In this document: piece after piece, positions 5,579 to 64,000 of the stretch
Layout of the letters: every line of letters begins with the position of its first letter
Numbering within the stretch: position 1 is the first letter of the stretch
Assembly (NCBI RefSeq): GCF_026210795.1
Contig: NC_089452.1
Span: 1,116,001-1,180,000 of the forward strand
Direction of reading: 5' to 3'
Source: Rhizophagus irregularis
Taxonomy: Eukaryota > Glomeromycota > Glomeromycetes > Glomerales > Glomeraceae
Length of the DNA: 64,000 nucleotides
Translations under genes and position numbers: made by a program
Notes under the pieces: generated by a model
Told to the model about the DNA's origin: nothing
What the model saw: the letters and a program-made list of their open reading frames with translations, nothing else
Databases searched by the model: none

Positions 5579-7318
5579 AACATACATAAATATTTTTGGT
5601 CGGATAATTTGATCGCTATCGTTTGTACTGTAAATATTATTTTTTAAATAAATAAATAAATATTATTTGGATATTTTCTTTTTCAAATTTTGAGCTAATT
5701 CGTTCAAATATTATGTAAATTAGAACGAGAGTTTGAAAGTAGTCTATAAGGAATTTCTTTTCTTTTTTTTACGAAATAATTAAGTGGCTTGTACAATTGA
5801 ACAATAAACTGAAATTTGCTTATATTTTGAAGTGAGGAAAATTGATCGATTTGAAGAAATTGTATTGCGTTATGGCGTTATATAATTACCATCTTAATTA
5901 CTAGCTTGCCAATTCGTTAACATTAAAAAACTTCGTTGTTCCACAATTTACAGAATGACCTTTCAATGAAAAAATAATTGCGAAGATATTTATTTTATAT
6001 CAAACATTATCAAGATAAAGTAAAAGCTCTTCATGGAGTTACATTATTAAACGTAATTATTTTACATTTTATCAGATAAATCTAATAAAACTAATATGGT
6101 TAAATAAATGTAATAGACGTGTTCGTGGACGTTTTCGTATTGGAATAAGTAATCATACACGACCAACGAGCGCGCATCTCGCGGCAATAAATAATAACAA
6201 GGATTAAGGAATTATTGCATCAAGAATTTATTTTCTAGTCATTAAATCTATGTACTTATTATATGCACTGATGAGTAGTAGATCAGATGATCTTTTTTCA
6301 TGATTCTCGCGTAAAAAAATTTACGAACATATTGTACATATTGTGTTATTATTTTTATTATTATATATGTTTTTATATTTATTATTTATTTTAAATTTTG
6401 GCAGTCATCATTTTTATTCACCGTATTTTATTTACTAAATATAAATAAATCTATTTTAAAAAAGGAATTTTATGTATCAATTTATTAAATCCAATAAAAT
6501 GCCCATTCGGAGATTGGAGTTTCGGGAAATGATCCAGTTCGGGAAACGGACAATCGGAAAAATTGACCTCAGGAAATGAAAAATGGCATTTGTGTAACTC
6601 ATCTAATGATAGTCGTAATTGTCATAGTGTCTAACAAATTTATTACGCAATTTACCGCTTGATCAGGCTCATGATCGATTCATGTGATCTATACATTAAA
6701 CGTGATCTAGTTTTAGCCAACTAGTTTTACTCGATCAAATCATCGAGCATGCATTTTTTGGTCGATTAAACTAGTTGCACATTGTATAATATAATAAAAT
6801 TTTGAAATATCTCCTTTGATAATTGATGTTTGTTTACCAAAGTTTGAGATCATACTGTAATGAATATTATTTTATTTAGTCAATTTCACGTAATAAGTAT
6901 TTTTGTTTTTTGAGAAATTTACGCATATCTATTTTAACTAATATCAAAGATTTTATAAAATTAACGGTATATTATCTTTTTACAATAAAAAAAAACCAAA
7001 TGATATAATTAACCTACCATTTGATCGCTGATCTAATAAACCCCAATTATGTATGATGATCATACAAGAAATTGAGTTTTTGGTTAGTATTTGTATCCAT
7101 AAATAACTTAAACCTTTCCTTATTCTTATCATTGCAATATTTTATTATGTGGCGTGCATGATTATTATTTTCATATTATAAATAGTAAAGTCTTGATTAA
7201 AATTCCCGTAAAGCATTATGCATCATATGAAACATAAAAATGGCGTAAATCACCAGATCAGGATCCTTGTACAACATGTAACAATCAAATACTATACTAG
7301 TTTGAACAATTATTTTTT
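5579..7318. other. Intergenic region between two F-box genes
   Basis: No ORF of note. A G-rich stretch near 6506-6600 contains several imperfect copies of CGGGAAA/CGGAAA. Around 6660-6780 there are short palindromic pieces built on GATC, AACTAGTTT and TCGATCAAATCATCGA. TTGTACAACA at 7266-7275 is probably part of the next gene's promoter. Confidence 0.5.
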
Positions 7319-7330
7319 TTGCGCCCTTTC
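7319..7330 (+). promoter_or_regulatory. Conserved 5' motif upstream of F-box gene
   Basis: TTGCGCCCTTTC lies 48 bases before the ATG at 7367, after a CAATTATTT stretch also present before the 37659 gene. TTGTACAACA sits about 55 bases further upstream in both. The spacing fits a promoter or transcription-start element; the function is inferred from conservation only. Confidence 0.45.
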
Positions 7331-7366
7331 AACAAAAAAAAATTTTTTTCTTTAATAAAGAAAAAA

Positions 7367-25589: not shown

Positions 25590-25836
25590 TCAAATGATCA
25601 AGAAAGGTAAATTTTACAAGACAAAGGATCTCTCTGACACCAATTAGCATAGTGCAATGCTTCATGGGCAATGCGAACGATCCCCTTGTAAAATTTATCT
25701 ATCTAAGAATGGTCAAATGATCAAAAAAGGGTAAATTTTTACAAGACAAAGGATCTCTCTGACACCAATCAGCACAGTGCAATGCTTCATGGGCAATGCA
25801 AACGATTCCCTTATAAAAATTATCTATCTAAGAATG
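25590..25836 (+). repeat. 123-bp tandem duplication with hairpin-forming unit
   Basis: TCAAATGATCAAgAAAGG begins at 25590 and again at 25713; the intervening 123 bases are repeated with about 10 differences. Each unit carries inverted arms (TTTTACAAG ... CTTGTAAAA) around a block with two GCAATGC copies separated by seven bases. No ORF. Confidence 0.8.
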
Positions 25837-25951
25837 GCCAAGTATTCCCGAGTTGACCAAAGGGTAAAGATTACGTCTCCATGCTATATTTGGTAAGCAA
25901 TGGACCTAGCTACGTAATATAAAATTATTTAATTAAATAATAATGTCTAAA

Positions 25952-30332: not shown

Positions 30333-33300
30333 ATGACGGAAACAACTGAAAAAGATTCTAATACTTATATAGATTGGTTAGAAAATGCAATATCAGAAAA
30401 TTATATTAAATATTATGATTACACTGATTTTACTAACAAAGAAGAAATAAGTAATGGTTCTTTTGGAAAAGTTTTTCGTGTAAATCGGAAAGATTCTGAC
30501 ACTGTTATGGCTCTAAAATATCCACTTAACTTAACTATCAAAGAAATCGTTAATGAGGTAAATTATCATTATAAACATTACGATAATGTATTTTTTTTTT
30601 GTCCTTAATATCATTATATTTATAATATTAGATAAAATTGCAACGTGAAGTTGATTACCATTCAAATATTATTCGATTTTATGGAATCTCAAAATTAGAA
30701 AACAAATATTTATTAGTTATGGAGTATGCTGATTGTGGATCATTACAATCCTATTTGAAAGAGAATTTTAATAAACTTGAATGGAATGATAAATATCAAT
30801 TAGCGCTCCAACTTGCAAATGCTATAGAATGTCTAGATAATGAAGGAATTATTCACTGTGATTTGGTAATGTAATAATAATTTATTGAGTACTTTTTTTT
30901 TTATTTATATCAATAAAGTTTTAAAATAAACATTCTTATCAAATATAGCATGCGCAAAATGTACTTGTACACCAAAATAAAATAAAGTTAGCGGATTTTG
31001 GTTTATCAAGAAAAATAACTGACATATCATATAATTTAACGAATGTCCTTGGTGTTGTTCCTTATATTGACCCAAAATATTTGAATAACATTAAAGATAA
31101 AAGCCAACTATATAAATTAAATGCAAAATCTGATGTTTATAGTGTAGGAGTTCTTCTTTGGCAAATTTCAAGTGGACATAGACCTTTTTATGCTGAAAAT
31201 GTAGAATATGATGCAAATTTGATCATGAATATTATAAAGGGACTAAGAGAGAAAATTGTCAAGGATACTCCTATTGAATACAGCAATTTATATAAAGGTA
31301 AATATTGAGTCATCATATCATGTTATATATATTTAGTTAAGAAAATTAATTAATTTAATTTCTTTTAGCATGTTGGGAAGATGATCAATCTAAACGACCT
31401 ACCATTCATCAAGTTGTCAAATTTCTTAAACAAGCAATTTTTGGAGAAAATAATGATGAGATTAATAATTCTTTGGAGAACAAAACAGAATTATTGCAAG
31501 AGAATCATTCTCAATCAATTATACCTAATTTAGCATGTATGCTTAGTAATAATTCTATAGAATATATGATGAGTAATAATTCTGAACTATATCTAAGTAA
31601 ATTAATACTAGATCATTTAAATAATGAAGTTAACTTAGATATATTAAATCTAGCAGAAAAATTATTTTTAGAAATATTCAACATAACAGATGATATAAAT
31701 ATTCTTATTGATAAGTTAATTATACTTTTGATTAAAACACAAGAAGAAGAAAATAGTATTAAAGAGACAAAACATTTCATTAACCATTGTATATCTCTTT
31801 CAAATCAAACATCAAGTGATATTTTTGAATGGCTTAAAGAAAATCAAACAAACTCATCTTACATTTTTTTTCTTGGATTTTTTTATTTTAATGAATTTAC
31901 TTTAGAAGAAAAAAATGATGAAAAAGCATTTAAATTGATTTTAAAAGCAGCAAAGGGCGATTATCCTATTGCGCAAGTGTATTTAAGCATATCTTATAGA
32001 TATGGAATAGGAACTGAAATTGATTATAGTTCAGCAATTTATTGGATAAAAAAAGCTGTAAATAATGGAAGTATTTGTGGACAGCTCTATCTTGCTAATT
32101 ATTATGGATATGGTATAGGAACTGATGTAGATCCAAATAAAGCTTTTTATTGGTATCAAATGTCAGCAAATAATAATAAGATTGCATTAATTTACTTAGG
32201 AAAGTGTTATGAATTTGGAAAAGGAGTAGAAAAAAATGAAAGCAAAGCATTTGAAATATATACAAAATTATACAAAAAAGAAGAAATAAATGGATATTTA
32301 CAACTTGCAATATGTTATTATTTAGGAGTTGGAACTAAAGTTCATAAATTAAAAGCATTTGAGTTATTTAAAAAAGCAGCCGAAAAAGATCATTTGATAG
32401 CTCAAAATAATGTTGGATTATTATATGAATATGGTGAAGGAACAGAAAAAAACTTAGATAAAGCTATTTACTGGTACAACAAAGCAGCTGAAAAAGGAGA
32501 AATAGTAGCATTATATAATTTGGGTCAATGTTATAGATTAGGAATAGGAGTTGAGAAAGATGAAGTTGTAGCTTTCAAGTATTATGAAAAATCTGCCAAA
32601 GAAGAATATTTGAATGCTCAACTTCAACTTGGAAAATGTTATTTTAATGGAATTGGAACTGAAGTTAATAAATTAAAAGCATTTGAGTTATATGAAAAAG
32701 TAGCTGAAAAAGGGCATAGTATTGCACAAAATATTCTTGGAATATTATATGAATACGGTGATGGAACAGAAAAAAACTTAGAAAAAGCTATTTATTGGTA
32801 TAATAGAGCAGCTGAAAAAGGAGATAAAGGAGCACAATATAACTTGGGTCAATGTTATGAATTAGGAAAAGGAGTAAAAAAAGATGAAGTTAATGCTTTT
32901 GAATATTATAAAAAGTCAGCTGAATCAGGATATTTAGATGCTCAATTCCAACTTGGATATTGCTATTATAAAGGAATTGGAACCGAAATTAATCATGTAA
33001 AAGCTTTTGAATATTATGAAAAATCAGCTGAAAAAGGAGATAGTGATGCGCAAAATAGCCTTGGTTATTTATATGATTGTGGGCAAGGGGTAAAAAAGGA
33101 CCGAAAAAAAGCTATTTATTGGTATCAAAAGGCAGCAGCAAATGGAAATGCTAGTGCATTATATAATTTAGGTGAATCTTATGAATTAGGAATAGGTGTT
33201 GAAAAAGATGAAATTAAAGCATTTGAATATTATAATAAGTCTGCTGAAAAAGAAGATAGTGATGTAAAATTTTACCTCGGGTATTGCTATATAAATGGTA

Positions 33301-33806
33301 TTGGGACAGAGGCTAATAAATCAAAAGGTTTTGAGTTATATAATGAAGCAGTTAGTAATGAAATTATTGGTATTGATGATAAAAAAATTGATGATTTAGG
33401 TAAAGTTTGTTATTGGTACCATAAATCAGCAGAAAATGACAATAAAGTTGCATTATATAAATTGGGTGAAATTTATGAATTAGGGAAGGGTGTTTGTAAA
33501 AATGAAGTTAGAGCATTTGAATTTTATAACAAATCAGCTAGTTTAGGATTTATAGATGCCCAATATAAACTTGGATATATTTATGAACATGGAATTGAAA
33601 TTGATAATAATAAAGAAGAGGCCATTAATTTATATAAAATGGCAGCACAAGGGGGGAATGTTGAAGCTCAAAAACGTCTTGCATCTTTATATGAAAAAGG
33701 TGAAGGTATACAAAAAGATATTGATAGTGCAATTTATTGGTATAAGAAGGTTATAGAAAATGGACATCCTGAAGTTAAAGAAAACTTGGATAATCTTTTA
33801 AATTAA
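30333..33806 (+). CDS. Protein kinase fused to Sel1-like repeats (four exons)
   Basis: Exons 30333-30557, 30632-30865, 30949-31297 and 31369-33806, all with GT-AG introns of 71-83 bases and consistent phase, give 1081 residues. Residues 1-50 are an acidic leader. The kinase domain follows: glycine loop ISNGSFGKVF, Lys in VMALKY, hinge MEYADCGSLQSYL, catalytic loop IIHCDLHAQNVL, LADFGLS and WEDDQSKRP. HCD replaces HRD, so the activation-loop-coupling Arg is Cys (a non-RD kinase), but Asp, Lys and DFG are present. From about residue 480 come roughly 16 Sel1-like repeats of about 36 residues (pattern YxxGIGTExD xxKAFxYYxKSAE). These form alpha-solenoid scaffolds in known proteins. The combination suggests a cytoplasmic signalling scaffold with its own kinase; target unknown. 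No damage seen. The first ATG is at 30333; an upstream TTG is not the start. Confidence 0.9.
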
Positions 33807-36630: not shown

Positions 36631-37618
36631 CACCGACTGAAATTTGTAACTTACTTTAATAGAACATTAAATCAAATTTTATTTTATTTTATTTTATTTC
36701 AAGAGAAACACATTATTAGTAAGAACTATAGGAAATCAAACATAATTTCGTAAAAGTAAAACATATGAGATACTGTAAAAAGCCACCTGACGAAGATATT
36801 TCTATCAAATGAATCAAATGATTGGGTCATGAATGCATAATCAATCATGTCATGTGTTCTTGTAAATCTGGTCAAAATTATCAATAGTGCCATAATTTTT
36901 TTATTCTTAATTCCGGCCGCTTAAATTTCTAAGATTGTAAATGACTTAACAAAGCGTCATACTATACTATGCAAAAGTGGATTAGTCGTAGTCAAGCGCA
37001 AAATAAGCAAATTAGTAAAATGTGGGATACTTTGGATTTATCAAATTTGTGGAATTACAACAATAAAACGATTTACATAGAATCTAATTATTCTAGGAAT
37101 TTTTTCTTTATTAAATTTAATTATTTTAATTATTTTTGTTTTATTAAATTACGTTTTTGTTTTTTTGGACTTTTTTAGAATAGGCTTTATTTTCAGATGT
37201 ATAACGTCTAAGACGTGATAATGATATGTAATATCAGATTTATTACAATATTAATAGAGTTAATCAAATTATCATGCTACACAAGCGTAAGGGGGACCTT
37301 CATTTTAGTATAGTAATTCATAATATATATTAAATTTCCTAAAATAGATGGTGACAGGGGATCTCAAAATCAATAATAATTGCATAATAAAATTTTATGT
37401 TACAAAAAAAACTTGGCAGTTTAGTTTTCATGAAAAATTATATGGTTAATATTGTATTTGATTTTCATTGCTCACGTTCTTCATGTGTTTCAAGCAGCTA
37501 AAGCAGCATGTACGATACGATTAATACGGTAAGTGGTACGCCTGATAAACAAACTTTATTGTACAACAAAGTATGACAAATCGACAATATAAATAAAATG
37601 TTATTTTTCATTCAATTA
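36631..37618. other. Intergenic region upstream of the fourth F-box gene
   Basis: A TTTTATTTTATTTTATTTT microsatellite lies at about 36678-36700. The open frame 36969-37178 has no recognisable content. TTGTACAACA at 37558-37567 matches the element upstream of the 7367 gene. Confidence 0.5.
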
Positions 37619-37630
37619 TTTGCGCACTTT
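37619..37630 (+). promoter_or_regulatory. Conserved 5' motif upstream of F-box gene
   Basis: TTGCGCACTTT lies 39 bases before the ATG at 37659, preceded by CAATTATT as in the 7367 gene, with TTGTACAACA about 60 bases upstream. Conserved 30 kb away from its paralogue while the surrounding sequence is not. Confidence 0.45.
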
Positions 37631-37658
37631 TTTTAAAAAAAAAAAAATAATAAAAAAA

Positions 37659-39029
37659 ATGTTCAAATTGGACAGAGATGTTCTTCGTTTGATATTTGAA
37701 GAATTACGAGATGATGAAAAGACACTTTGTTTATGTCTATCCGTTAATAAAGCAATTTGTGAAACAGTTGTTCCAATTTTATGGAAAAATCCTTGGAAAT
37801 CGATAAAGGAAGGAAAAGAGAAATTTTTATTAAATGTTATAATTTCACATTTATCAGATGAATCAAAGAATAACTTAAAGAATTTAGGCGTTAATTTATT
37901 AACAAATTCCTATAAAAAGCCTTTATTCAACTATATTAGTTTTTGTAAACATTTACGTTTATGTGGAATTAAGAAGATAATTAATTCCTACGAAGAATCT
38001 AAAATTTCAATTATTAACAATGAAATATTTAAACTTTTTATTAATGAAAATATGAAATATACACATCTTTATATACCTCTTAATTTTGATATTCAAATAC
38101 ATCTTATTCACGGAGCCAAAAGTTGTCTGTCAGAAATTATATTCCTTAAATGTCATTCGAACAATGATGATAATATAGCCAGACTAACAGAAATATGTAA
38201 ATCAATTAAAGAAATGGAACTTTTTATAGTTGATAATAATAAGAATAATGAGATTATTAAATTAATTGAAGCACAAAGAAAATTATTTAACGTTAGTTTA
38301 AAATATTCTTCGTATGGCGAGGATAGAACTCTTGAAAATTCTTTAATTAAACATGCAAATACTATACAATATTTTAAGATAGATAATCAATCTATCACTA
38401 AGTTTCTTTTATTATTTGTTAATTTAAGAGTACTAGATTTGCATGAAATTATAATTGAACCATTGGATCAATTAAAGAATATATCTTTACCTTATTTAAA
38501 AATTTTATATGCTAGACGTGTTTCATACATTATTTTAATAAGTTTAATTGAAAGTACAAGTGGACAACTTACTGAAATAAGTTTTACTTATTGTACGGGA
38601 AATAAATACATTGAAGATAAACATATTATTCAGGTTATTTATCAAAATTGTCCAAATCTTAAATATCTTAAAACAGGGCTTGGAGATATCAGAGATATTT
38701 TAGAATTAGAAAACTTATTAATTAACTGTCAATACTTAGATGGATTATACCTTACTAATTATATAAATTCATTTAATTTTGATAATTTATTCGAAATGCT
38801 GGCTAACTTATCATCAATTAATTTATTTAAATTTAAATTCGATTTTTTAGCATTTAGATTAAAAAAATCTTTAAAATTATTTTTTGATAATTGGAAGGAT
38901 AGACATCCAATGCTAATACAAATAAGTTATATAAAAGAATATTCTAGTTTAATGGAAGAATATAAAGCAGAAGGAATAATTAAAAATTACAATCATTTGC
39001 ATGGAGAAGATTTTGAGTGGAATACTTAA
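37659..39029 (+). CDS. F-box/LRR-like protein
   Basis: The product is 456 residues from the ATG at 37659 (MFKLDRDVLRLIFEELRDDE); the frame is open 13 codons upstream without an ATG. It has an F-box at residues 1-50 (VNKAICETVVPILWKNPW), then leucine-rich strands (LFVNLRVLDL, ISLPYLKILY, CPNLKYLKT, LINCQYLDGLYL) and the family tail LKLFFDNWKDRHPM ... EYKAEGIIKNYNHLHGEDFEW. Predicted SCF ubiquitin ligase receptor with unknown substrate. Intact. It shares SHLSDESKNNLK and SYKKPLF with the 7367 protein. Separated from the other copies by 29 kb of transposon debris that also holds two dead copies. Confidence 0.92.
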   Translation: MFKLDRDVLRLIFEELRDDEKTLCLCLSVNKAICETVVPILWKNPWKSIKEGKEKFLLNVIISHLSDESKNNLKNLGVNLLTNSYKKPLFNYISFCKHLRLCGIKKIINSYEESKISIINNEIFKLFINENMKYTHLYIPLNFDIQIHLIHGAKSCLSEIIFLKCHSNNDDNIARLTEICKSIKEMELFIVDNNKNNEIIKLIEAQRKLFNVSLKYSSYGEDRTLENSLIKHANTIQYFKIDNQSITKFLLLFVNLRVLDLHEIIIEPLDQLKNISLPYLKILYARRVSYIILISLIESTSGQLTEISFTYCTGNKYIEDKHIIQVIYQNCPNLKYLKTGLGDIRDILELENLLINCQYLDGLYLTNYINSFNFDNLFEMLANLSSINLFKFKFDFLAFRLKKSLKLFFDNWKDRHPMLIQISYIKEYSSLMEEYKAEGIIKNYNHLHGEDFEWNT

Positions 39030-42867: not shown

Positions 42868-43525
42868 CAATTTCGCTATTTGACTACAAGTTAATTCTGC
42901 TATTTGATTACAAGTTAATTCTGTTATTTGGGTATTTGGCGAATTTATATCGCCATTTTACTACAAGTTAATTCTGCTATTTGATTACAAGTTAATTCTG
43001 TTATTTGGCGAATTTATTTCACCATTTTACTACAAGTTAATTCTGCTATTTGATTATAAATTAGTTCTGCTATTTGGCGAATTTATTCTGCCATTTTACT
43101 ACAAGTTAATTCTGCTATTTGATTATAAATTAGTTCTGCTATTTGATTACAAGTTAATTCTGCTGGTTGATTACAAGTTAATTCTGCTATTTGATTACAA
43201 GTTAATTCTGCTATTTGATTACAAGTTAATTCTGCTATTTGATTACAAGTTAATTCTGCTATTTGATTACAAGTTAATTCTGCTATTTGATTACAAGTTA
43301 ATTCTGCTATTTGATTACAAGTTAATTCTGCTATTTGATTACAAGTTAATTCTGCTATTTGATTACAAGTTAATTCTACTATTTGATTACAAGTTAATTC
43401 TGTTATTTGGTTACAAGTTAATTTTGCTATTTGATTACAAGTTAATTCTGTTATTTGATTACAAGTTAATTTTGCTATTTGATTACAAATTAATTCTGCT
43501 ATTTGATTGCAAGTTAATTTCATTA
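42868..43525 (-). repeat. 24-bp minisatellite spanning a stop codon
   Basis: A 24-base unit (octapeptide NQIAELTC on the - strand) is repeated about 17 times in frame inside the HMG-box gene. It continues for about 200 bases past the stop at 43085-43083. Downstream a variant unit carrying GGCGAATTTAT and CCATTTTACTAC occurs three times (about 42938, 43007, 43075); the third contains the actual stop. Eight central units are identical in protein, indicating recent expansion or homogenisation. Confidence 0.92.
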
Positions 43526-44744
43526 CTTGATTCCGTTGTGGATTGTCTATTACCAATCCTGGCGAATTATTGAATCCGATTGACCCATAAAGTTCATTAA
43601 ACTCGGGCCGGATATAAGGATTATTTAATACTGTGGTAGTTGGGGTTGGGGAAACAGACGAATTGGGATATACTGAAAAACCATAAGTGGAGGATTCCGG
43701 TTGAATGTTGAGATAATACCCCATATTGGAGAGAATAGATGCATCTTGACCACAAGTAGGGTACCCCGGTGGACCAAAGCAAAGTATGTTGGATATAGCT
43801 TGAGTAGAAAGATAATTCGATGGCTGATTTCCCATAAATTCCAAGCTAGTATAAGGATGATATTGCGAAAAGGTATCAACAGGCGTAGTAAAGTGAGATT
43901 CAGTAGAAATTGGTGGGAAAGTTGTTGGCGAAAAAAATGAATCGGAAGATTGAGGACTATCAGGGCTAATTATAATGGTTTCATCGAATTGCAATTCTTC
44001 TATAATAGGGGAGTTTGATTCAATATTCTCGAATTGAAGCAAATCTGCTAATTCTTGTGAATCGTTAACGGAGTTGGATAATTGTTCAGGAATATCAGGA
44101 TCAAATGGAATGCTAGCATCAGATTGGTATGATTCTTCCATATCAGGAATGCTAGCATCAGATTCTTCCATAGTAGGAAATAATATTTGTGAATTGTTGT
44201 TATTGTTGCGTTGTTTTGACGAAGGAAGAGATGTGGTGAGCATTGAAAAAGAAGCCGTCGACCTATTTTTTTCAACGTATTTTTTTTTATTTCCTTTTTT
44301 TTGATTTCTCTTTTTATATTTATAATCCTTGTGTTTTTTTGCATGCTCTTTCTTTGCCACTTCTGCACCACATTTAAAAATATCTTTGACTTCCTCTGGC
44401 TCTTTTTTCCAATCTTCTCCGATTAATTCATTTATTTCTGATTTCGGCCTTTTTTCGGCCACCATATTCTTGTATTTTTGTTTCCTACGTGCATAGTTAT
44501 TATATATAAAATAGGAATTGAGGGGACGTGGGATTTTAGAATCAGATTTTTTATTTTCTAACAGTTTATTTCGTTCAGTTCTATCCATAGGAGATAGATA
44601 ATCCGTGTTATTCCAAATTTCCTCGGGCTGTTTAGCATTTTTAAGTGTAAAGGTAGGAGTATCAGGGTCGTAAGGTTTTTCAGTAGATGAAAGGGTATTG
44701 AAACAATTATTAGTCCCCTCGTTAACAGAGAAACTGGTTTGCAT
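43083..44744 (-). CDS. HMG-box protein with C-terminal octapeptide repeat array
   Basis: A 553-residue single-exon ORF from the ATG at 44744. Residues 71-147 form an HMG box (IPRPLNSYFIYNNYARRKQK, DWKKEPEEVKDIFKCGAEVA, HKDYKYKKR), the sequence-specific MATA_HMG type greatly expanded in Glomeromycotina, which binds and bends DNA in the nucleus. Residues 150-170 are Lys-rich and may be a nuclear localisation signal. Residues 190-400 are Ser/Pro/Asn/Asp-rich and probably disordered, suitable for a transactivation region. Residues about 408-553 are some 17 copies of NQIAELTC with minor variants, each carrying one Cys. Such a tail is not part of the HMG family, and the repeat DNA continues past the stop. 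The protein may be a functional regulator with a variable tail. Confidence 0.88.
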   Translation of the reverse strand: MQTSFSVNEGTNNCFNTLSSTEKPYDPDTPTFTLKNAKQPEEIWNNTDYLSPMDRTERNKLLENKKSDSKIPRPLNSYFIYNNYARRKQKYKNMVAEKRPKSEINELIGEDWKKEPEEVKDIFKCGAEVAKKEHAKKHKDYKYKKRNQKKGNKKKYVEKNRSTASFSMLTTSLPSSKQRNNNNNSQILFPTMEESDASIPDMEESYQSDASIPFDPDIPEQLSNSVNDSQELADLLQFENIESNSPIIEELQFDETIIISPDSPQSSDSFFSPTTFPPISTESHFTTPVDTFSQYHPYTSLEFMGNQPSNYLSTQAISNILCFGPPGYPTCGQDASILSNMGYYLNIQPESSTYGFSVYPNSSVSPTPTTTVLNNPYIRPEFNELYGSIGFNNSPGLVIDNPQRNQVMKLTCNQIAELICNQIAKLTCNQITELTCNQIAKLTCNQITELTCNQIVELTCNQIAELTCNQIAELTCNQIAELTCNQIAELTCNQIAELTCNQIAELTCNQIAELTCNQIAELTCNQPAELTCNQIAELIYNQIAELTCSKMAE

Positions 44745-47449
44745 TTTTGTTATTTTTGGTGATTAAGTGAAAGTAAAAAAAAAAAAGTCCGTTGAGAAAA
44801 CATTATTTATTAAAAAATTTTTAATCCGTAGTAAAACATCTGTTCGCCATTTTTATTAATAATTTCTGTTGATTATTTCGGTCTAGTGATCAAATATTAC
44901 TTAAAGAGGAAGGTTGTCTGTTGATTCTTTTTGTTAATTTTCTTCTGTTGATTATTTTGGTTAATACTACTTGTGTTGAATATATTTGTTAATACTTACT
45001 GTTGATTATTTTTCGTATACTTAATATTGTCTTAATTTACTGTTGGATATATTTGTTAATTTTTGAATGAAATTATATTTATATTTGTTAAGTGTAACAA
45101 CTTTAACGCCCATCATAAAATAATTAATGACCTCGTATAACCCATATGAAGCACATAATTGGAATTTAAAATTGAAGATCACAGAAACCGCAGGTACCGC
45201 AGAAACCACGTTTCGGAGTGAAAATTCCAAAAAGTAGTACATAATAATAATAAATAATGATGATGATGCAATATTTAATCAATTTTTTTTTAATTTATGA
45301 GTTTTTAAAAATTAAAATGAATTTATAAATGGAAATTGTATTAAATAAAGAATTATTAAAGATATCATATTATTAATTGCCGATCTGCATATGATCGATA
45401 GAAAATATCGGAGTTCTTTTAAAGATAAGCTTATCAATTTGTAACATTTGTAATCAAAATTCGGATAAAATTTTTACTAAAAAATCCTTTGATAATAAAA
45501 TTCTTAATGGTTACACCGAATGACTGTTATATTTGCAACAAAGAATATGATTTTTTGAGCGTAGCTCAATAAATTCTGCCAATCATATTGCTCATTGAAT
45601 GCATGCATGTAAAGATGCGGTGCCGCAGCTATGAGGTCACATGCGACTTGTATTCCCCCCTTTTTTTTCTGGCGAACTTTTATTAATTAAATTGATCAAA
45701 GAAATTACAATTATGTCTTTAGTTTGATAACAGTTATAGTAAAAAACTATCTAAACAATAATACTAAACTAAATATCTAGAATGAAATAATAAATTAAAT
45801 CACCCCCAACAAACCAGATTAAATGAAAATATAGAACTATATAAAATAAAAAACTCACCCTATCGGGCAAACAAATAGAAATTTAAAATACAAACAAAAA
45901 TTAAACGTAATCTGGCTCCACCCAGAATTTTTTTATTTCCCTTAATCTTCCGCATACAAGTAAGTCTGTCAGATCTTTACCTGATTAACAAAAATTTTAT
46001 AGAAATTATTAATAGATCTTTTTTTATCAAATATTTAGAATTATTCTCGTAAAATTCAAAATTTTTACGAATCCGTCTAGAAATTTGTAAAAGTCTATCA
46101 ATTTTTAACAAATTCATTTGAAATTTTATATGAGATTAGATTTTTATTATACAAATATTGGATATCAATATCTGATATTACAAATCTTGAAACTCTGAAC
46201 GGAATATTTAAACATTATTACGAACTAGCTAAATTTTGGCAATATCTATTACTTCATAAATTTACGCAATTATTTTTTGTCTCATAAAAATATCAGCTAG
46301 GAATCTTAAATTTTCTGCATCTATATACTCTTGAGTATCCGCTACTATATTCTTTTAAAAAAAAAAATAATTAAAAAAAAATGTAGAGAAATTTATTGTT
46401 TAATAACGTCAAAAACAGCAAATGCTACGCAAATTTTCTTTATATATAATAAAGTGTTTATTTTTAGATTATTAAGTAGAAACGAGGTTTCAATTAATCT
46501 ATCGTTCATATACTGATTAACAAATATTTTAAAATCACTTTTGATGACTGAAATGAGTGAAACGATCGAAACATGCCACACATTTATATAAAAACAATTT
46601 TTTTTTTTTTAAAAAAAAAGAAACCGCATTAAAAAATCAATTAGAATATATGAACTTATCGCTTATATAAGTTTATTTATTTATTATTATTTATTTATTT
46701 ATTGCAAATTTAATCAAAAGACTAATAAAATTTGACGAACTCACAGCGGTAAAGTCACGTGATTATCAATAAAAAATAAGTGTGGGCCAAAGGATGACGA
46801 TTATGGTCTTGATTTGTGGCTCATATTCGGAGTAATCCGTCTAAAGTCACTTGTACTCTAGAGTTTTGTGAATTCTACATTTACATTATCAGTTTTTATT
46901 TGTATATTTTTTTAAAAAATAAACGCATATATAATATTTTCATAATTCTGAATTCTATGATCCTAATATTCATATTCCAGCAAAAGACTCACCAGTTAAT
47001 AGACATTTGTACAGTTGAGTCTGATGAAAATTACATAATAAATTAAATACCAAAAATTCTGGATTTATAATAAAGTTCTTACACTTTAAATTTCTTGGTT
47101 AAAACTTATCTTTTTTTTAAAAAAAAAAAAATTAAAACTCGTTAACTTTAAAATGGTAAAAAAATTTTTCTCTTGAGATTATAATTACTTTCTTCTTTTC
47201 GTATAAAAATGGGCACGAATTGATAATTGTCTTCATCAAAATACAACCGTTGAATAAAATAATTTGTTAATAATAAGTATCATCATCATTTTTAGAATTA
47301 AAATTCTTTAATATAATGCTGCTATAATTATGATCCATTAACAAACAATATCACCTTCTATGTAATTTTTATTTCTTTTCTTCATTTTTTCTAAATATTT
47401 TAGAATTTTAAGTTTGGACATTATTGTTCTTTGAAAATACAAAGGTAAT
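44745..47449. other. Gene-free AT-rich region
   Basis: Upstream of the HMG-box gene are TTGATTATTT-type repeats (44870-45030). The open frames at 45021-45242, 46331-46581 and 46816-47046 lack recognisable content. No RNA gene seen. Confidence 0.5.
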
Positions 47450-50494: not shown

Positions 50495-50900
50495 AATATT
50501 TTTTTATATAGAAACTATATATATTATGGTTTTTATTTAAAAAAAATGGCGATTTTAATTAATGACTTAATGTTTTAAATAAAACCGAAAAAATTCATAA
50601 AAAAAATATTTTTTTTATATAGAAACTATATATATTACGGTTTCTATTAAAAAAACGGAAATTTTTTAAATAAAAACGAAAATAATATTTTTTTTTATAT
50701 AGAAACTATACATATTACAGTTTTTATTAAAAAAAACGGCGATTTTTAATTAATGTTTTAAATAAAAACGAAAAAATTAATAAAAAAATATTTTTTTTTA
50801 TATAGAAACTATATATATTACGGTTTCTATTAAAAAAACGGAAATTTTTTTAAATAAAAACGAAAAAATTAATAAAAAAATTTTTTTTTAGTAACTTAAA
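50495..50900. repeat. Compound tandem repeat with alternating unit lengths
   Basis: TATATAGAAACTATA occurs at 50505, 50616, 50696 and 50799, i.e. spacings of 111, 80 and 103 bases. Long and short versions alternate, giving a dimer of about 185-190 bases repeated twice. Units also share AAACGGAAATTTTT or ACGGCGATTTT and AAATAAAAACGAAAA. Non-coding. Confidence 0.75.
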
Positions 50901-56251: not shown

Positions 56252-56790
56252 GGGTGAGATTGGTGTGGAGAATTAAGGAGTAGACTTAAGAAATGATATG
56301 AGAATTTACTAATATTCCCGCTTTTTATATTTTCTATCTAGTAGAATCCTAGATTATTGGACTTTAGAAATTGGAAATAAACTATGGAAGGGATTAGGCA
56401 TAAGGGCATTTCTCCTTTCTTTTTTCTTATAAGTCTCACTTGGGCAGCCTTGGACTTCAGAATGAAAGGTATGGTTGGGAATGGTGCGTTATTAAGGAAT
56501 GTTAGTAAGACCTTACTAACACTTACTAACATTCCTTTCATTTTTTTTAAATACCTACTATCTGGGTCCTTGGACTTTTGACCAGCCCATACTACCTTCC
56601 AATTCTGATTTCTAAAGGACTGAGAACATTATGTAAAACTATTACCATTCTTTCATTTTATCTTGTAAGTATGGACTAGACACCTTAGATCAGAATTGTA
56701 GATATGGGTGGGAATTAAGGAGTAGGAGAATTAGAAGCATTAGCAGGCGCCTTTTACTAACATTTCCTTACTAACTTTTTTTGAACTTCT
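56252..56790. repeat. Nested inverted and direct repeats
   Basis: A hairpin at 56501-56541 pairs GGAATGTTAGTAAG with CTTACTAACATTCC. Outside it, TTGGACTTTAGAAATTGGAA (56358) is roughly complementary to a block ending TTCTAAAGG (56619). GAATTAAGGAGTAG occurs at 56263 and 56713 in direct orientation, each followed within 50 bases by TACTAAyATT. It looks like a composite of decayed foldback elements. Confidence 0.55.
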
Positions 56791-57481
56791 TTTATTAAAG
56801 AAACATTCGCTAATGTTTCATGCCTCTGATTAAGAGTTTATTATTCATTTCAAAGCTTAGTTTTTCAGAAAGAGACATTATACAATTTTAAAAGTTGTGA
56901 ATATTTTTTGGCTGTGCATTTACCAATCATTATGTGATTCAGTTTGTTACTAAGCTCATTGATTACTGGTTTTGTTATTTAATATAATGAGAGATTTAGC
57001 ATATACGTGTGGTATATCATATGCAATTGCAATAAAATATCTCATTTCACAGCTAAGGGGAATGAAATTGAACATCTTTCTTTCTTTCAAATCATTTTTT
57101 GATTTAAGGATCATCCTCCCTATGAATCTTTATTCCGTATTTTTTTATTCCATGTAATATGTATCATATAGAAATTGTGGATGAAATCTTTTACAGGAGG
57201 GAGCTTATTCAGTTCATCTTAGTTCTCAACTAATTTTTATTGGAATTTTTTTGGCTGCTACTAGACTCGTTAAATGAAATAAGCCATGCTGCACAAATGT
57301 GGCACTGTATCACATGTCATTGAATTTTCTATGCAAATGACAATGATTAAAGTTTTAACATAGTAAGTTTTAACATACTGAATAGAATAAAAAATTCTTG
57401 AAATTTCAAGTTTTCCTTGTTTATTCTGGTGAAACAGTTGTACACCGAAGTTATAATATGTACTTCTAAAGAACACATTTA

Positions 57482-57799
57482 GGACGAAAAGTTGATATGA
57501 AGGGAACGCTAAAAAAAAATACTCCAAATAAATTTGAAGCTCTTTTTGGTGAAGTATCTGGTAGTATGACATCATTAGGTGTTTTTCTTCATCTCGTAAA
57601 AAAAGATATCTTGGATAAGGTGAAGCTTGGTATTATGATGCGGGATTCTCTTAACAGTGCGTTGAAAGGATGTAAAGGACAGGCAAAATTATCACAAACT
57701 AAAAATTCAATGAAAGAGCTGTATTGTAGCAATATGAGAAAAAAGTATCGCAAAACTACAAGGGAGTATAGTCCAGTTTTGAATATAAATAGTCAGTAA
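57482..57799 (+). pseudogene. Fragment of an unrecognised, probably lineage-specific protein
   Basis: The + strand reads GRKVDMKGTLKKNTPNKFEA, LFGEVSG, then YxxVKLGIMMRDSLNSALKG and a basic tail MRKKYRKTTREYSPVLNINS ending at 57799. The frame is open before the ATG at 57497, so the true start is upstream. The composition is that of a real protein. I cannot name the family. The frame starts without a clear acceptor or promoter, so it is probably a terminal exon or a remnant. Confidence 0.5.
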
Positions 57800-57929
57800 A
57801 GCTGAAAATTGAACTCACTAATTGACATTGGTCTTTATAATTATGATGCTTTGTATGACAAAGGTATACTCAAGTCTAAATTGATTTAAAATTTTATTAT
57901 TAAGATAATGATGATAACATACAGAAGAA

Positions 57930-58185
57930 TCAGTTTCAACTGGGATTTGAGTTTATTTCACATCATTATGTTTATTAATTTTTAATTGCATTTCTTGGAT
58001 TAATTCATCAATCTTTTCATTTCCACTAGTCCAATTTGAAAAATTTTGTTTTAAATTATTTATTTGGCATTAAACAAATTTCAGGGAACCCGAATTCTCC
58101 GGTTACACCATTCCTTATATCCGTATAAATTTTGCCACAGTATTCACAATAACAATCTTGAAGTATTAAAATATAATTTTTTGTA
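57930..58185 (-). pseudogene. Kinase-family N-terminal relic
   Basis: The - strand reads CEYCGKIYTDIRNGVTGEFG, FPEICL, and after a frame change KQNFSNWTSGNEKIDELIQE, MQLKINKHNDVK, then a stop. This matches the zinc-ribbon plus FKNWTSGNNEVDKFIQKAQL N-terminus of the kinase pseudogene at 3816. No kinase domain follows; the fragment ends at about 57930. Confidence 0.7.
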
Positions 58186-58537
58186 TTTCAAATTGTGTCA
58201 ATATTATAGTTACCAGAAATTTGTGGTAAACCAGTTATGAGAACCAAAAAATTAAGTTTGCATGGTCTTATAAAATCTAGTCACAAAAATTTCATTAAGT
58301 AAATTCAATATATATCCATTATATGTATATTTAGTGCAATCTGAATTTTGTATTAATATAATGCTGAATTTTAATTGCTTATTTAATATAATTAAAATAC
58401 CTATTTTGCCCAATTTGAATTACTAGTTATTAAGATATCCTATTTAATTAATTTTTGGACTAATTAAAATTCTAAAATTGCATGTAAAAATTAGTTTATA
58501 AAAATTTTATGATATAAGTATACTAGGAAAAAATATT
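58186..58537. other. Spacer between relic kinase and bromodomain gene
   Basis: AT-rich, nothing recognisable. Confidence 0.4.
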
Positions 58538-60586
58538 TTAAACCTTATCATATGAATAATCAGATATTATTTCTTCTACAGATCTCCATAAAACACGATG
58601 AAAGCCAACTACCAAGATAACAAATCCTTTTAATTTATTTGGATTTGATTTAGTTATTTTGATTTGTTCATCAAATATTCCTGAACTAGAATAATTAATT
58701 GTTTTTCCATTTGAAATGACATTCATATATGATTTCAATTGATTAACCCCATTGTCTAATACTTCTCCTATAGTTGTTTGTTTGGTTTCTCCATATTCTT
58801 TTGACCAATATGAATATGATCTTTTTAACAAAACCATTTCATTTTCTTTTTCAATAATTTTATCTAGATTTTCCAGATCATTTGCATTAAATTTATTTTT
58901 ATAATTTTTAATTAATTTAATTAAATTAACCAATGAAATGTATTTTAATTACAAACATACATTATTATATCCTATTCCTTTTAAAACAAAAATATCAGAA
59001 TATCCAAAACGGCCAAAACCTTTTAATTTTGTACCAGCCATTACTAATGAAAGTTCAGGAATACGATATTTCAATGGTAAAAGGCTTTCAACAATTGCCT
59101 GAAGAACAGGCTCATCTGCAGAAAATAATGACATCTTTGATCTTGTTGACAGAAATGTTTTTAAAATTTCTATAAAGGGTATAACATTACCTGCAACAAG
59201 ATTTTCATATGCTGAAGCTATAAGAAGGGCATCATTTACAACTTGTCTATATACTAATTTGTCTTTATTTTGTTCTAAAACTCGAATTTGTTTTGTTACA
59301 AGTTCTAATAAATTGTCATAATTAAAAATGTCAATATTATATAGAGATATTCTTTATCCAATATTTGAAGAATTTCAATAAAGTAATGAAAATAACTTAC
59401 CAGAAGATAAATCAGCATCACTAGTATCTTGTATTCTTTTTAAATTTTCCTTTTGTTTAACTTGAAAAATTATTTTTTCAGTCCATATTTTATTAAAAGC
59501 TGATTCCAATTCTTCTCCTAAACAATATATTTCACTTCCAATATCATTATATGTATAACAATTGCGAAATATAAGACGAATATCATTTTCAAATTCTTTT
59601 GTACTTGTATATTGACCATTTTCTAATGTTGAATTTATTGTAAATAAATCCATTTGATTTTTTATAAACACTTCCTTTTCATCATATTTATAGAATGGAT
59701 GAATGTTAGACTGTTCATCAAGTTTTTGAAGAATATCATAACAAAAGTTATTAAGCTTAGTGTTTTTATAAGAAATTTTGGAATGGTTTTTAGTAGAAAT
59801 AGAATAGCCTTTAATAGGAATAGAATGATTTTTGTCTTCAATATTATCTTTATTGGTAGGAATAGAATGATCATTAGCAGCAGAAATAGAATAATTATCA
59901 ACAGGAATGAGATGAGGAATTTCAATTATCTTCTTAGCAGTAGGTACCAGATTTTCTTTTTCTTTTTTATATTCATTAATAATTCCTTTCCAATACATTT
60001 GTAATGTTTTTGCATAACGTAAACGTTCTGAATTTACCTGTTACAAGAAAGAGATTATTAGTTATTGTATGCAAAAATTTTATTTAGTAATAAAAGAAGG
60101 TACATAGCCAATTCCTCCTCCAGAATTAGCAGACTTTTATCAACTACAAAGTGAGGACACCTGAACTGAGAGCTTGGAGTGGTTACCAAGGTTGTCAAAT
60201 CCAGTAATTCCCCTATCTCGAAGCAATTATCAATTTAGGGGTTATCCTTACTTTGCAAAATAAAAATTTACACACCTTATTTTTTAAACCAGGGACATCT
60301 TTTCCTTCATGCAAAAAGTGAGCAGCCCAAAAATGGTCAAGTTCATCCCAGTTGTCTGAAAAAACTGATGTACCAATAATATCATGATAACTTTTCAAGA
60401 ATCTACAATATGATATTTTCATATTTTTTGTTATATAAGAGATAAGAACTAGAAAGGTGCAAGTTAATTAATTAGATATTAATAATACAAATTAAAATAA
60501 GTTTCCAAAAACTTACCATTTTGACCAGGATAGCTCTCAGATGTGCTTTTATTCTTAATATTGGAATAGCTCTCAGATGTATTCAT
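58538..60586 (-). CDS. Bromodomain protein fused to a PD-(D/E)XK nuclease-like domain, stopped at the active site
   Basis: Exons 60586-60517, 60448-60276, 60037-59401 and 59304-58949 have GT-AG junctions in consistent phase and give 411 residues. Exon 1 starts MNTSESYSNIKNK. Residues about 175-269 are a bromodomain: KLNNFCYDILQKL, IKNQMDLFTI, EFENDIRLIFRNCYTYNDIG and LESAFNKIW; the acetyl-lysine-binding Asn is in YTYND. Exon 4 carries the start of a PD-(D/E)XK nuclease-like module (SLLPLKYRIPELSLVM, GRFGYSDIFVLK). The expected next motif is ELKYISL, but Glu is replaced by TAA at 58951-58949 (CL-stop-LKYISL). The same frame then continues open for 131 codons (KNKFNANDLENLDKIIEKEN ... VLWRSVEEIISDYSYDKV) to 58538. 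Function inferred: a chromatin reader coupled to a nuclease-like fold, without activity in this allele. It could be one gene with a new stop, or a pseudogene. Confidence 0.75.
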
Positions 60587-60599
60587 ATTTTCAACTTTA

Positions 60600-60730
60600 A
60601 ATATTAAATGATAAAAATTATTAAGTGATAAAATTATTAAAATTATTATTAAATGATAAAAATTATTTAATGATAGAAAATTAAATGATAGAATTAAATT
60701 TATAGAATTAAATCTTTTATATAAAATCAA
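60600..60730. repeat. AAATGATA/AAATTATT microrepeat
   Basis: About ten imperfect units of AAATGATA and AAATTATT immediately upstream of the bromodomain gene start. It produces the Leu/Ile/Asn frame 60479-60730 by chance. Confidence 0.5.
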
Positions 60731-60984
60731 ACAAACAAGGGTATTAAATAAAAAAAAATCTTTCGTAAATAGTTTGACTCAAGCTGACACATTGAAATAT
60801 AAAATTGAAAAAAATTATCATATGAAACATCTACATTTATATATATAACTAAATCTATTCATTGTCATATTGACAAGATTCTATTTTGCCAAATATGGTA
60901 ATAATTGTATGAATAATATTTGAATAAAATCATATCAATAATACTGTTAAAAAATCATGGCTTAGATTGGATTTTAATTTATAT

Positions 60985-61300
60985 ATACTTAGCAAATGAC
61001 TTGACTTTGTCAGTCTGACTCTTTTAACATGTATAGCATTTAAAAGATGAAATATGTTGACAAACATTAAGTTATATTTTATATAATATTAACAAGATGA
61101 CAGAAACTGATGAATAATTTTGCCATTTGTAAATGCTTAGCAAATGACTTGACTTTTGTCAGTCTGACTCTTTTAATATGTATAGCATCTAAAAGCTGAA
61201 ATAAGTTGACAAATACTCAGTTATATTTTATGAACAAATCATATCGAAAATTAAAATTATTTAATTTGTAAATGTTTAACAAATGACTTTAAATTGGCAA
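60985..61300. repeat. 148-bp direct repeat
   Basis: CTTAGCAAATGACTTGACTT begins at about 60989 and 61137, and the next roughly 110 bases (GTCAGTCTGACTCTTTTAA, TGTATAGCAT, AAGTTATATTTTAT) match with few changes. A third, shorter start (TTTAACAAATGACTTTAAAT) lies at about 61269. Non-coding. Confidence 0.75.
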
Positions 61301-61417
61301 TATATGAATAAATTATTGGTATTTAGAGATTTTAATTCTCAGATTTATTGAAGACTAACGCTAACTACTGTAAAAGTATTAACAAAATCACTGGTCAAAT
61401 GATGAAGAATTGTACAC

Positions 61418-61556
61418 AGTGAAATTCGATAAACTGGATCTTCGATAAACCGGATTTGGGCCTAAACCAGATTTTTTTGCTGGAACCGAATCACGTATAT
61501 TAAATAGTTTCGATATACCGGAGTTTACTAGTAAAAGCTCGATATTCGATAAAATG
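61418..61556 (+). mobile_element. Possible pogo/Tigger-type terminus
   Basis: CAGTGAAATTCGATAAACTG at 61418 is followed by three more TTCGATAAAC/TTCGATATAC-CGGA units (61440, 61498, 61548). CAGTG after TA with repeated CGATAAACCGGAT units resembles pogo/Tigger ends. The opposite end is not found. Inference only. Confidence 0.35.
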
Positions 61557-61561
61557 GATCA

Positions 61562-61675
61562 ATTTTTTTTTATTTTATTTTTATTTTTAAGATACGGACT
61601 CAACTGGGGTCGAACGCTAAATAGGAATAAACATGATCTAAAAGAACAATAAATTCTAAGCTAATGTTAAACCCA
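61562..61675 (-). mobile_element. tRNA-derived SINE-like element
   Basis: On the - strand an A-box-like TTAGCTTAGAATTT (61665-61651) is followed 33 bases later by a B-box-like GCGTTCGACCCC (61617-61606). Then come GTTGAGTCCGTATCTT and an A-rich tail (AAAAATAAAAATAAAATAAA) to 61562. A hairpin of TTCGGG/CCCGAG type lies just upstream at 61678-61705. This family differs from the element at 23760-23850. Confidence 0.5.
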
Positions 61676-62035
61676 ACCTCTCGGGAGAAGCCCGAAGGGG
61701 TCGTCTTGCCCACTATTCTATAGAACAATCAGGCATAACCGGGAGTCTAGAGGGTACTATCAAACGAAAAACAATCTTACCAAAATCCCAAGAAAAATAA
61801 ACAAGAAAAATTAATAAAACCCGTATTTTGCTTTCAGCCCTAAGGCTGCCACTTGTCAATACTGTCATAAGTGGAGTGGTTCACACTATTCTAAATTGTT
61901 TAATATGTTTACAGACATACATGATGACGTGGGGTAAGTTAGACGCCAAAATGTGAAATGTAAAGTATAAAGTAGGAAAAAATGTTAAAAGACTCATTAC
62001 ATGAAAAATATACATATATAGAAAAAGAAACTAAT
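61676..62035. other. Spacer of more balanced composition
   Basis: GC-richer than most of the window, with no ORF. It probably belongs to the flanking mobile elements. Confidence 0.4.
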
Positions 62036-63960
62036 TTAATTAGAATTAAGACTAGTAAATAGGGAGTCGGATAGGTAACTATTCGCTGGTCTTGGTCTTT
62101 TACTGTCGTGTGATTGTAACGAAGCGGAAGGATTAGTCAACGTATCCCTCTTGTGAGGTCGGTATTCCACTGTTTTAGTTTCATCTGATGTGTATGAAGG
62201 AGAACCAAAGAGGTCTGTATGGTAATCAGGCGGGCAATAAGGCCTTGGAGCGTACGGTTTACTCATAAAGTCATCATAATCTTGATGCTTTTCCATCCAT
62301 TTCTTCCACTTGTGATGTTGTTTTTTTTTGGAAGGTTTTGGAGGTGGTGGAGGTTGTTTTATATACTTGTGGTATTCTTTAGTCCAGACCGTGATTTGTC
62401 GAGTTGACATTGCTCGACGATAATAATGTTTGAGAGTAGTACCCATAGCGTTAGCGGCGGATGAATCGTAATCTAGAGCGTTAGATTGATGTATATTAAT
62501 AGTTGGGGTAAATTGGGTTGATCAGGGTTGTATTGTAAAAAATAACTACTGTCCACTTTTGACGGGTCTACGGGATTATAACCGTAGTAAATAGGAGTGC
62601 GTTTAAGTGGTTCTAAAAGACCACCGAGAGCCGCGGTTTCTTCAGCGTTCAAATAATGGGGATCGTGTTGGCACCAGAAGGCCTATATGAGGTCGAAGGT
62701 TGTGATCGAGCTATAGGCGTAATACTGGAATTCTCCAGCATGTGGTGAGGTATCTTAAATGTATAGTCATCGGGATCAGGTAATAATTTCTCCGTTGAAA
62801 AACGCTTGAATTTCAGATGGTGAATAGGTGAATAAATGTGTTGAGCTTCATGAAACAGGAAGCGAAAACGTCTCCCTGCTGCAATTTTATCCTCTTTCAT
62901 AGTGCGGGATATAGGGTTAATATTTTTGAACATCCGCGTACAATGTCTCTTGAAGCGGGTTTCCTGTTTACGTTTTGTTGCGGGGTTACTGCTGAGGTTA
63001 AATTTGAAATCCAAAAGGTGTTTCCTATAAATGTAGGCGCCTGGGTGTTTGCGTATGAAATTACTACTGTTGGCTGCAAAGCGTACATTGTATCGAATAC
63101 CAAGACGATTGGAAGAAATATCATTTTTCCATCGATGTTGCCAAAGATCGTATACATGATTTGCGTGTGAAGATTTTGAATTTATAAATCCTGGGTCCGA
63201 ATCAGGCACAGGTTTCAAATGGTGATTGATTTCTTTTCTCGAAAATTCAAATTGATGAGTACCACAAGCACGTCTATTTAAAGACATGACGAAAGGACTC
63301 GGGCTGTGACACCGGGTGGAAAGATTAAATGAACCAGGTGTGTAAGCATGTTCACAAGGAATGTAAATACCAAAGTAGAAGCGGTAGCGCTTATAAGAAA
63401 ATGAGAAGAAAGTTTTTGTAATGGTGTTCTTCAAAGTTCTTTTAGAAGCACGTGACTTGATAAAGTCAATTCGTTCCAGTAATTTCCGGCGAATCAAGTC
63501 AAAATACTTTTGTTGAATACGTCAGGGTAAAACTTTTTGTAAGGTAAAAAAGTGTGTGAGCATTTTACTAATTTGATATCTTGTGTTAGGCAAATAGCTC
63601 GTGGATGTGTATCGAATAGGCGTAGAATCCATGTGATAATCATTGGTGTGTAAAAATAAATGAAGATTATTGGTGTCCGAGAAAGGATCAGCAAGCTCAA
63701 AAAAGAAACTTTTTGAGCGTCTAAATTCGTAAATCTTGTTATAACCGGTTCGGCATTTTGTCATCACGTGAAATTTTTTCACAGAGACAAGGAAAGTATT
63801 TTCATGAGCGTTGGACATATTATTAAACGTATTTGAGGAAAAAGGTAAAGGTAAAGGTAAAATAGTCTGGTCGTTATGAACAGACTGAAGTGAAACAGGT
63901 ATATCTTCTGTATCCATATCTCTCACAGGTCAATGGTAATAAAAGGAGACCTTTCCGTAG
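62036..63960 (-). pseudogene. Degenerate mobile-element ORF, unclassified
   Basis: One coding region in several frames on the - strand. From 63960: PLGGLYGKVSFYYH, a TGA, then MDTEDIPVSLQSVHNDQT and 130 codons to a TGA at 63524-63522. The same frame continues RIQQKYFDLIRRKLLERIDF for 280 codons to 62649. A frame change joins YLNAEETAALGGLLEPLKRT; another near 62510 joins FTPTINIHQSNALDYDSS and MGTTLKHYYRRAMSTRQITV. It ends with Pro/Lys-rich PPPPPKPSKKKQHHKWKKW, DDFMSKPYAPRPYCP and a stop at 62036. Both TGA codons are one C-to-T change from CGA (Arg). Codon use is GC-richer than the host genes. It is probably a retroelement accessory (ORF1-like) protein; no RT, integrase or transposase motif is visible. 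Confidence 0.55.
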
Positions 63961-64000
63961 AGGCCACCAAGTGGTTCTCGCTCCTTAGAAAAAACTATAA

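What the first reader, a model, noticed from the sequence alone, without database searches (positions are those of the whole stretch)
58538..59304. Stop codon sits exactly at the catalytic Glu of a PD-(D/E)XK module fused to a bromodomain
The exon reads GYSDIFVLK, then VCL-TAA-LKYISL. In PD-(D/E)XK proteins with this arrangement the motif is ExK (ELKY), so a single GAA-to-TAA change removes the catalytic residue. The downstream 131 codons stay open with no other lesion, implying the stop is recent, or that a shorter product or readthrough is used. A bromodomain joined to a nuclease fold in one gene is itself unusual and hints at chromatin-targeted cleavage or host control of a mobile element.
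Basis: partly seen in the sequence, partly recalled or inferred. Interest (0 to 1): 0.72.

Follow-up and report, generated by a model that had tools for sequence, protein, structure and literature searches.

The report
Broken bromodomain gene, nuclease-like tail
A fungus-like gene that joins a chromatin-reading bromodomain to a tail resembling a DNA-cutting enzyme carries one premature stop signal, so this copy most likely makes only a shortened protein; the stop looks recent and its exact position is probably coincidence.

Summary
The sequence facts hold. On the minus strand a predicted four-exon gene (60586-58538, 548 codons, three GT-AG introns) joins in frame. Exon 3 encodes a clear bromodomain (Pfam E = 2.3e-16). 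The tail is thus former coding sequence and the stop is young. The PD-(D/E)XK label is not confirmed: no credible Pfam, NCBIfam, PHROGs or PDB sequence match; against eight fetched PDDEXK_9 proteins exon 4 did no better than shuffles; two structure models were unusable. What remains is a motif order that looks like the superfamily. That the stop sits on the catalytic Glu is inference, because no relative was found in the collections searched, none of them eukaryotic. Splicing cannot restore the motif: the first AG after the stop lies 28 codons downstream. Best reading: a recently inactivated copy whose 411-residue product keeps the bromodomain and loses half of the nuclease-like module. The domain fusion is more interesting than the stop.

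The parts
60517..60586 (-). exon 1, start ATG, 23 codons + 1 base
   Evidence: in-frame join and GTAAGT donor; start codon inferred
60449..60516 (-). intron 1 (68 nt, GTAAGT...TTTCTAG)
   Evidence: splice consensus; no RNA
60276..60448 (-). exon 2, no Pfam match
60038..60275 (-). intron 2 (238 nt, GTGTGT...GTAACAG)
   Evidence: no RNA
59401..60037 (-). exon 3 with bromodomain
   Evidence: PF00439 E = 2.3e-16; 321 distinct PDB sequences at E <= 0.001 (best 60 shown), best BRD4
59305..59400 (-). intron 3 (96 nt, GTAAGT...ATTTATTAG), joins bromodomain exon to exon 4 in frame
   Evidence: no RNA
58952..59304 (-). exon 4 before the stop: G-Y-S-D-I-F-V, candidate first half of a restriction-endonuclease-like core
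   Evidence: sequence; codon score 0.156; no profile match over cut-off
58949..58951 (-). in-frame premature TAA, codon 412 of 548
58541..58948 (-). 136 open codons after the stop: LKY, NQLKSY and GFVILVVGF stretches, candidate second half of the core
   Evidence: codon score 0.158 and length test
58538..58540 (-). terminal TAA of the longer frame

Best explanation
A four-exon gene of an AT-rich, Rhizophagus-like fungus codes for an N-terminal part without known domain, a bromodomain and a C-terminal module that looks like a restriction-endonuclease-fold nuclease. In this copy one in-frame TAA at codon 412 cuts the module in the middle. The expected product is a 411-residue protein that keeps the bromodomain and loses the second half of the module, so it should be unable to cut DNA whatever residue stood at that codon. 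The stop arose recently (inferred from the intact frame behind it) and lies in the last exon, so exon-junction decay need not remove the message (inferred). Shown: frame, stop, bromodomain, coding-like tail. Inferred: splicing, nuclease-like identity, loss of activity, organism. In the intact form the likely working is acetyl-histone reading that tethers a nuclease-like module to chromatin; that step is a hypothesis.
For: Exons join in frame over three GT-AG introns into 548 codons with one internal stop. Bromodomain by Pfam and by 321 distinct PDB sequences; in the printed alignment to BRD4, query NCYTYN aligns with NCYIYN and NCYKYN, which hold the acetyl-lysine-binding Asn (that role recalled). 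The tail after the stop keeps coding codon use (0.158 against a noncoding mean of -0.186; 5 of 3,540 windows as high) and a length rare by chance (2 of 93,132). 95 single changes would create another stop in the tail and none has, giving a rough 95% bound of 0.095 neutral substitutions per site since release. The motif order of a restriction-endonuclease-like core is present in exon 4; a pattern of it matched 0 of 20,000 shuffles and 0 of 488 open frames of 200 aa or more from fetched loci and window. The pattern was written with the query in view.
Against: No credible sequence-profile support for the nuclease. Against a profile of eight PDDEXK_9 proteins the read-through piece with X at the stop scored 1.2 bits, while 84 of the 439 shuffles that got a score (500 made) did as well or better; hhalign gave probabilities of 0.04% and 0.8%. 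The motif pattern misses 7 of 8 true PDDEXK_9 proteins even in its core part and 8 of 8 in full, so it says little about membership; in the rows printed the Tyr after the Gln is six residues on, here four. AlphaFold models without relatives reached mean pLDDT 40.2 and 33.7 and show no strand of three residues or more (too poor to count). No RNA; the stop could be an assembly error. The organism is judged from composition and gene content only.
Confidence: 0.6

Rival explanations
1. The stop is an error of sequencing or assembly, or one allele among nuclei, and the working gene is intact.
For: A single-base feature with an otherwise perfect frame of 136 codons and preserved codon use is what an error would look like.
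Against: Nothing seen in the window marks the base as doubtful; no reads or second assembly could be consulted (no genome held).
Confidence: 0.17
2. The shorter 411-residue protein is a selected product: a bromodomain reader freed from its nuclease-like half, perhaps competing with intact paralogues.
For: Upstream exons, splice sites and bromodomain look intact; stop in the last exon.
Against: The half module left behind would be expected to misfold or erode; no evidence of selection, expression or intact paralogues could be obtained; no paralogue elsewhere in the window.
Confidence: 0.1
3. An alternative intron removes the stop.
For: A consensus-like donor GTATGT starts at 58960, and 35 of 95 GT-AG pairs of 45-300 nt would leave an open frame to the end. 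On a hand-set consensus score five pairs using that donor reach 6.72 to 7.17, four of them above the weakest intron of the model (6.77).
Against: Those five pairs are out of frame and meet a stop early. The first AG after the stop ends at 58864, so every such intron removes at least 28 codons behind the stop, including LKY. Within 420 nt the GTATGT donor has only one in-frame acceptor, at the very end of the gene (58544). The best pair that leaves an open frame scores 6.67 against 6.77, 7.56 and 7.78 for the three introns of the model. No such intron can restore the motif.
Confidence: 0.06
4. Exon 4 is not a nuclease module at all but another fold, and the stop merely shortens an unknown domain. 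(Overlaps with the other readings of the stop.)
For: Profile and PDB sequence searches gave nothing credible.
Against: Order of SD-hhh, xLK, QhxxY and a following hydrophobic strand.
Confidence: 0.2

Closest known systems
Bromodomain (PF00439), BET type such as BRD4 and yeast Bdf1
   Same: Pfam E = 2.3e-16; best PDB matches BRD4, polybromo-1, bromodomain-containing factor 1; acetyl-lysine Asn column kept in the alignment to BRD4
   Different: one bromodomain found; joined to a tail without a recognised domain
PDDEXK_9 (PF08011) and other PD-(D/E)XK nuclease families
   Same: by eye, order of G-x-(S)D strand, x-x-K strand, a helix with Q and Y, following strand
   Different: no profile similarity; 67 residues between K and that Q here against 8 to 10 in the PDDEXK_9 rows printed (counted by eye), and Q to Y four residues here against six there; the position two before K is a stop
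REase-domain C-termini of Crinkler-like proteins of Rhizophagus irregularis (PMC6131194 and PMC5289972, passages read)
   Same: restriction-endonuclease superfamily domains are reported there in multi-domain proteins
   Different: here the partner is a bromodomain; exons 1-2 give no Pfam match; no residue comparison with those domains was made

Membership tests
Bromodomain | profile match over cut-off | tested here: met
   59.9 bits against cut-off 21.7
Bromodomain | Asn that binds acetyl-lysine | tested here: met
   NCYTYN aligned to NCYIYN and NCYKYN of BRD4; role recalled; binding not tested
PD-(D/E)XK nuclease superfamily | profile similarity to a described family | tested here: not met
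   and direct test against PDDEXK_9
PD-(D/E)XK nuclease superfamily | D then (D/E)-x-K on two neighbouring strands | tested here: inconclusive
   D in GYSD and K in LK present at a usual spacing (spacing recalled); the middle position is the stop
PD-(D/E)XK nuclease superfamily | restriction-endonuclease-like core fold | tested here: inconclusive
   models with mean pLDDT 40.2 and 33.7, unusable; no fold search made
PD-(D/E)XK nuclease superfamily | metal-dependent DNA cleavage | not testable with these tools
   needs protein
Crinkler-like proteins | N-terminal Crinkler header | tested here: inconclusive
   no Pfam match in exon 2 or in the joined start of exons 1-3; a divergent header is not excluded
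Pseudogene | in-frame lesion in a sequence that otherwise keeps coding character | tested here: met
Pseudogene | intact relatives elsewhere | tested here: inconclusive
   none in the window, viral contigs, prokaryote contigs or phages; no eukaryotic collection at hand

The most novel reading that the evidence does not exclude
The gene belongs to a family that ties a restriction-endonuclease-like nuclease to acetylated chromatin through a bromodomain, and copies that lost the nuclease half by a stop inside the active-site strand persist as chromatin-bound inhibitors of the active copies.
Probability: 0.05. Interest if true: 0.6.

Novelty: new member of a known kind. Interest (0 to 1): 0.2.

Why it matters
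Nonsense-cut gene copies are ordinary. The part worth following is the domain pairing: a bromodomain spliced to a nuclease-like module would be a direct route from histone acetylation to DNA cleavage. In three full-text searches of open-licence papers no listed title or start of abstract speaks of such a fusion (one review holds 'Rhizophagus irregularis', 'bromodomain' and 'nuclease'; seven papers hold the first two; none holds 'bromodomain', 'restriction endonuclease-like', 'transposon' and 'fungi'); the papers were seen as listings only, so this is no proof that it is unpublished.

Tried and rejected
Relatives: viral contigs with both halves of exon 4 and with exon 3, prokaryote contigs with the read-through piece and phages with the second half gave none. 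Two degenerate patterns for DIFV...ELKY in viral contigs gave 20 and 1 stretches. On reading all 21, 6 had both motifs in one frame: in L130 the frame ends before the second motif, in L149 the open frame is 37 aa, and the other four (L137, L145, L146, L147) show one and the same 112-aa frame. None of the 21 aligns to exon 4 by tblastn at E <= 1.

Weak library matches rejected as chance: DUF6943 (E = 0.066 and 0.08, below cut-off), Cj0814 family (E = 0.0036 and 0.0079, 17.2 and 16.1 bits against a cut-off of 80), PRK07051 (E = 0.072 and 0.16), two PHROGs of unknown function, 9d26 (E = 0.69), 2uyg (E = 1.7). PADLOC was not searched.

RNA editing of A to I was considered and rejected from general knowledge: it cannot change the leading U of the stop. 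A first look for PDDEXK_9 in six genomes found none (0 of 6) before one search found 7 of 148.

Transposon around the gene: within 56400-61900 and 61300-64000 the inverted pairs found are short (21-30 nt), 73-88% complementary, and none looks like terminal repeats around the gene. Paper searches served to find background; from PMC3886924 passages were read and nothing was used.

Full report
What is there. The minus strand from 60586 to 58538 reads as one gene. Four exons (60586-60517, 60448-60276, 60037-59401, 59304-58538) are separated by introns of 68, 238 and 96 nt with GT-AG ends and join in frame to 548 codons plus a final TAA; codon 412, positions 58951-58949, is an internal TAA. The open stretch behind the stop has 136 codons, not 131. 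The exon structure is inferred from consensus and frame; no RNA was available.

Is the tail former coding sequence? Yes, very likely. Simulated DNA with the second-order statistics of stretches of the window taken as noncoding gave 2 stretches of 136 codons or more among 93,132. A codon score trained on six long open frames of the window (2,941 codons) gives 0.232 for exon 3, 0.156 before the stop and 0.158 after it in frame, and negative or near-zero values (at most 0.045) in the other five frames; 5 of 3,540 overlapping windows of supposedly noncoding sequence score as high (those windows are not independent and may hold unnoticed exons). The first 20 codons behind the stop are too few to judge alone (0.07 in frame against 0.059 and 0.089 in two other frames). 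With 95 single changes that would make a further stop and none seen, the time since the lesion is under about 0.095 neutral substitutions per site, a rough bound that assumes equal rates.

What the domains are. Exon 3 is a bromodomain beyond doubt: 59.9 bits against a cut-off of 21.7 and 321 distinct PDB sequences at E <= 0.001, best BRD4. In the alignment to both BRD4 bromodomains the NCYTYN stretch lies on NCYIYN and NCYKYN, so the acetyl-lysine Asn is kept (role recalled). Exons 1-2 match nothing in Pfam.

Exon 4 has no profile match that counts. Pfam at E up to 10 gave only DUF6943 at E = 0.066, below cut-off, for the first half, and nothing for the read-through piece, its core or its second half. 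NCBIfam gave a Cj0814 family match at E = 0.0036 with 17.2 bits against a cut-off of 80, which I take as composition, and a weaker one. PHROGs and PDB gave nothing below E = 0.1. I built a profile from their last 135 residues and scored exon 4 with X at the stop: 1.2 bits, reached or passed by 84 of the 439 shuffles that got a score out of 500 made; the second half alone scored 2.3 bits and hhalign saw no relation. So membership by sequence is not met. The motif order G-x-SD-hhh, xLK, QhxxY, then a hydrophobic strand is still striking to the eye. A pattern written from it matched 0 of 20,000 shuffles and 0 of 488 real open frames (its first part alone matched 1 of 488, and L124, one of the PDDEXK_9 proteins, matches that part). 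But it also missed 8 of 8 true PDDEXK_9 proteins in full and 7 of 8 in its first part, so it is specific to this sequence rather than a test of the superfamily; counted by eye, the spacings from K to Q and from Q to Y differ too (67 and 4 here, 8-10 and 6 there). Two AlphaFold runs without relatives failed (mean pLDDT 40.2 and 33.7). I therefore say 'looks like', not 'is'.

Does the stop sit on the catalytic residue? No relative was found that shows the column: viral contigs, prokaryote contigs, phages and the rest of the window hold none at the sensitivity used, and no eukaryotic collection was open. 114 of the other 253 codons in the exon are one change from a stop, so a hit on one named codon has a chance near one in a hundred, and the codon was named after the stop was seen.

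Can the cell get round it? Splicing cannot restore the motif: the first AG behind the stop ends at 58864, 28 codons on. Thirty-five of 95 GT-AG pairs of 45-300 nt would reopen a frame, but only by removing LKY and more; the best of them scores 6.67 on a simple hand-set score, just under the weakest intron of the model (6.77). Against this reading stands the donor GTATGT at 58960: its pairs score up to 7.17, above that weakest intron, but the five best are out of frame and would also end the protein early, and within 420 nt its only in-frame acceptor is at the end of the gene. Such splicing would truncate the protein too, not rescue it. TAA is the stop of 5 of 6 other long open frames in the window and of this gene, so a changed code is not indicated.

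Where it comes from. GC lies between 22% and 33% in 2-kb steps except the last (38.5%). The window holds several related long open frames, one of which shows a weak F-box, a protein with 16 Sel1 stretches and an HMG-box protein. From general knowledge this suits Rhizophagus-like Glomeromycotina; it was not tested. In R. irregularis, restriction-endonuclease superfamily domains are reported in Crinkler-like proteins (PMC6131194, passages read; such domains in Crinkler-like proteins in general in PMC5289972, passages read; the primary paper, 10.1093/nar/gkw221, is not held). Pfam finds no such header here, which does not exclude a divergent one.

Verdict. An ordinary recent nonsense lesion in a gene with an interesting but unproven domain pairing. 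The truncated product should keep the bromodomain and lose the second half of the nuclease-like module.

Noticed in passing
42875-43519 (in open frame 43086-44762, - strand): An HMG-box protein (PF00505, E = 7.4e-9) whose C-terminal part is coded by a 24-nt minisatellite of about 27 copies, giving an ELTCNQIA-like octapeptide repeat (Pfam ALTTAQ repeat, E = 9.3e-15).
   Followed up: partly
3-1160, 4187-5575, 7301-8776, 37593-39026 (+): Four long open frames that look related by eye; the one scanned (4187-5575) has a weak F-box start below cut-off. Perhaps a local cluster of a multi-copy family.
   Followed up: partly
31359-33803 (+): Open frame with 16 Sel1 repeat stretches, coded in part by a 324-nt tandem repeat; perhaps the C-terminal part of a longer protein (upstream part not checked).
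   Followed up: no
62000-64000: GC rises to 38.5% against 22-33% elsewhere; long open frames on the minus strand, three of them scanned without a Pfam match over cut-off, perhaps a mobile element or recent insertion.
   Followed up: no
60977-61295: Two 77-nt copies 149 nt apart (91% identical) and, next to them, a 32-nt element present three times, just upstream of the bromodomain gene.
   Followed up: no
50499-50866 and 25590-25841: Tandem duplications of 183 nt (90% matches) and 125 nt (92% matches).
   Followed up: no
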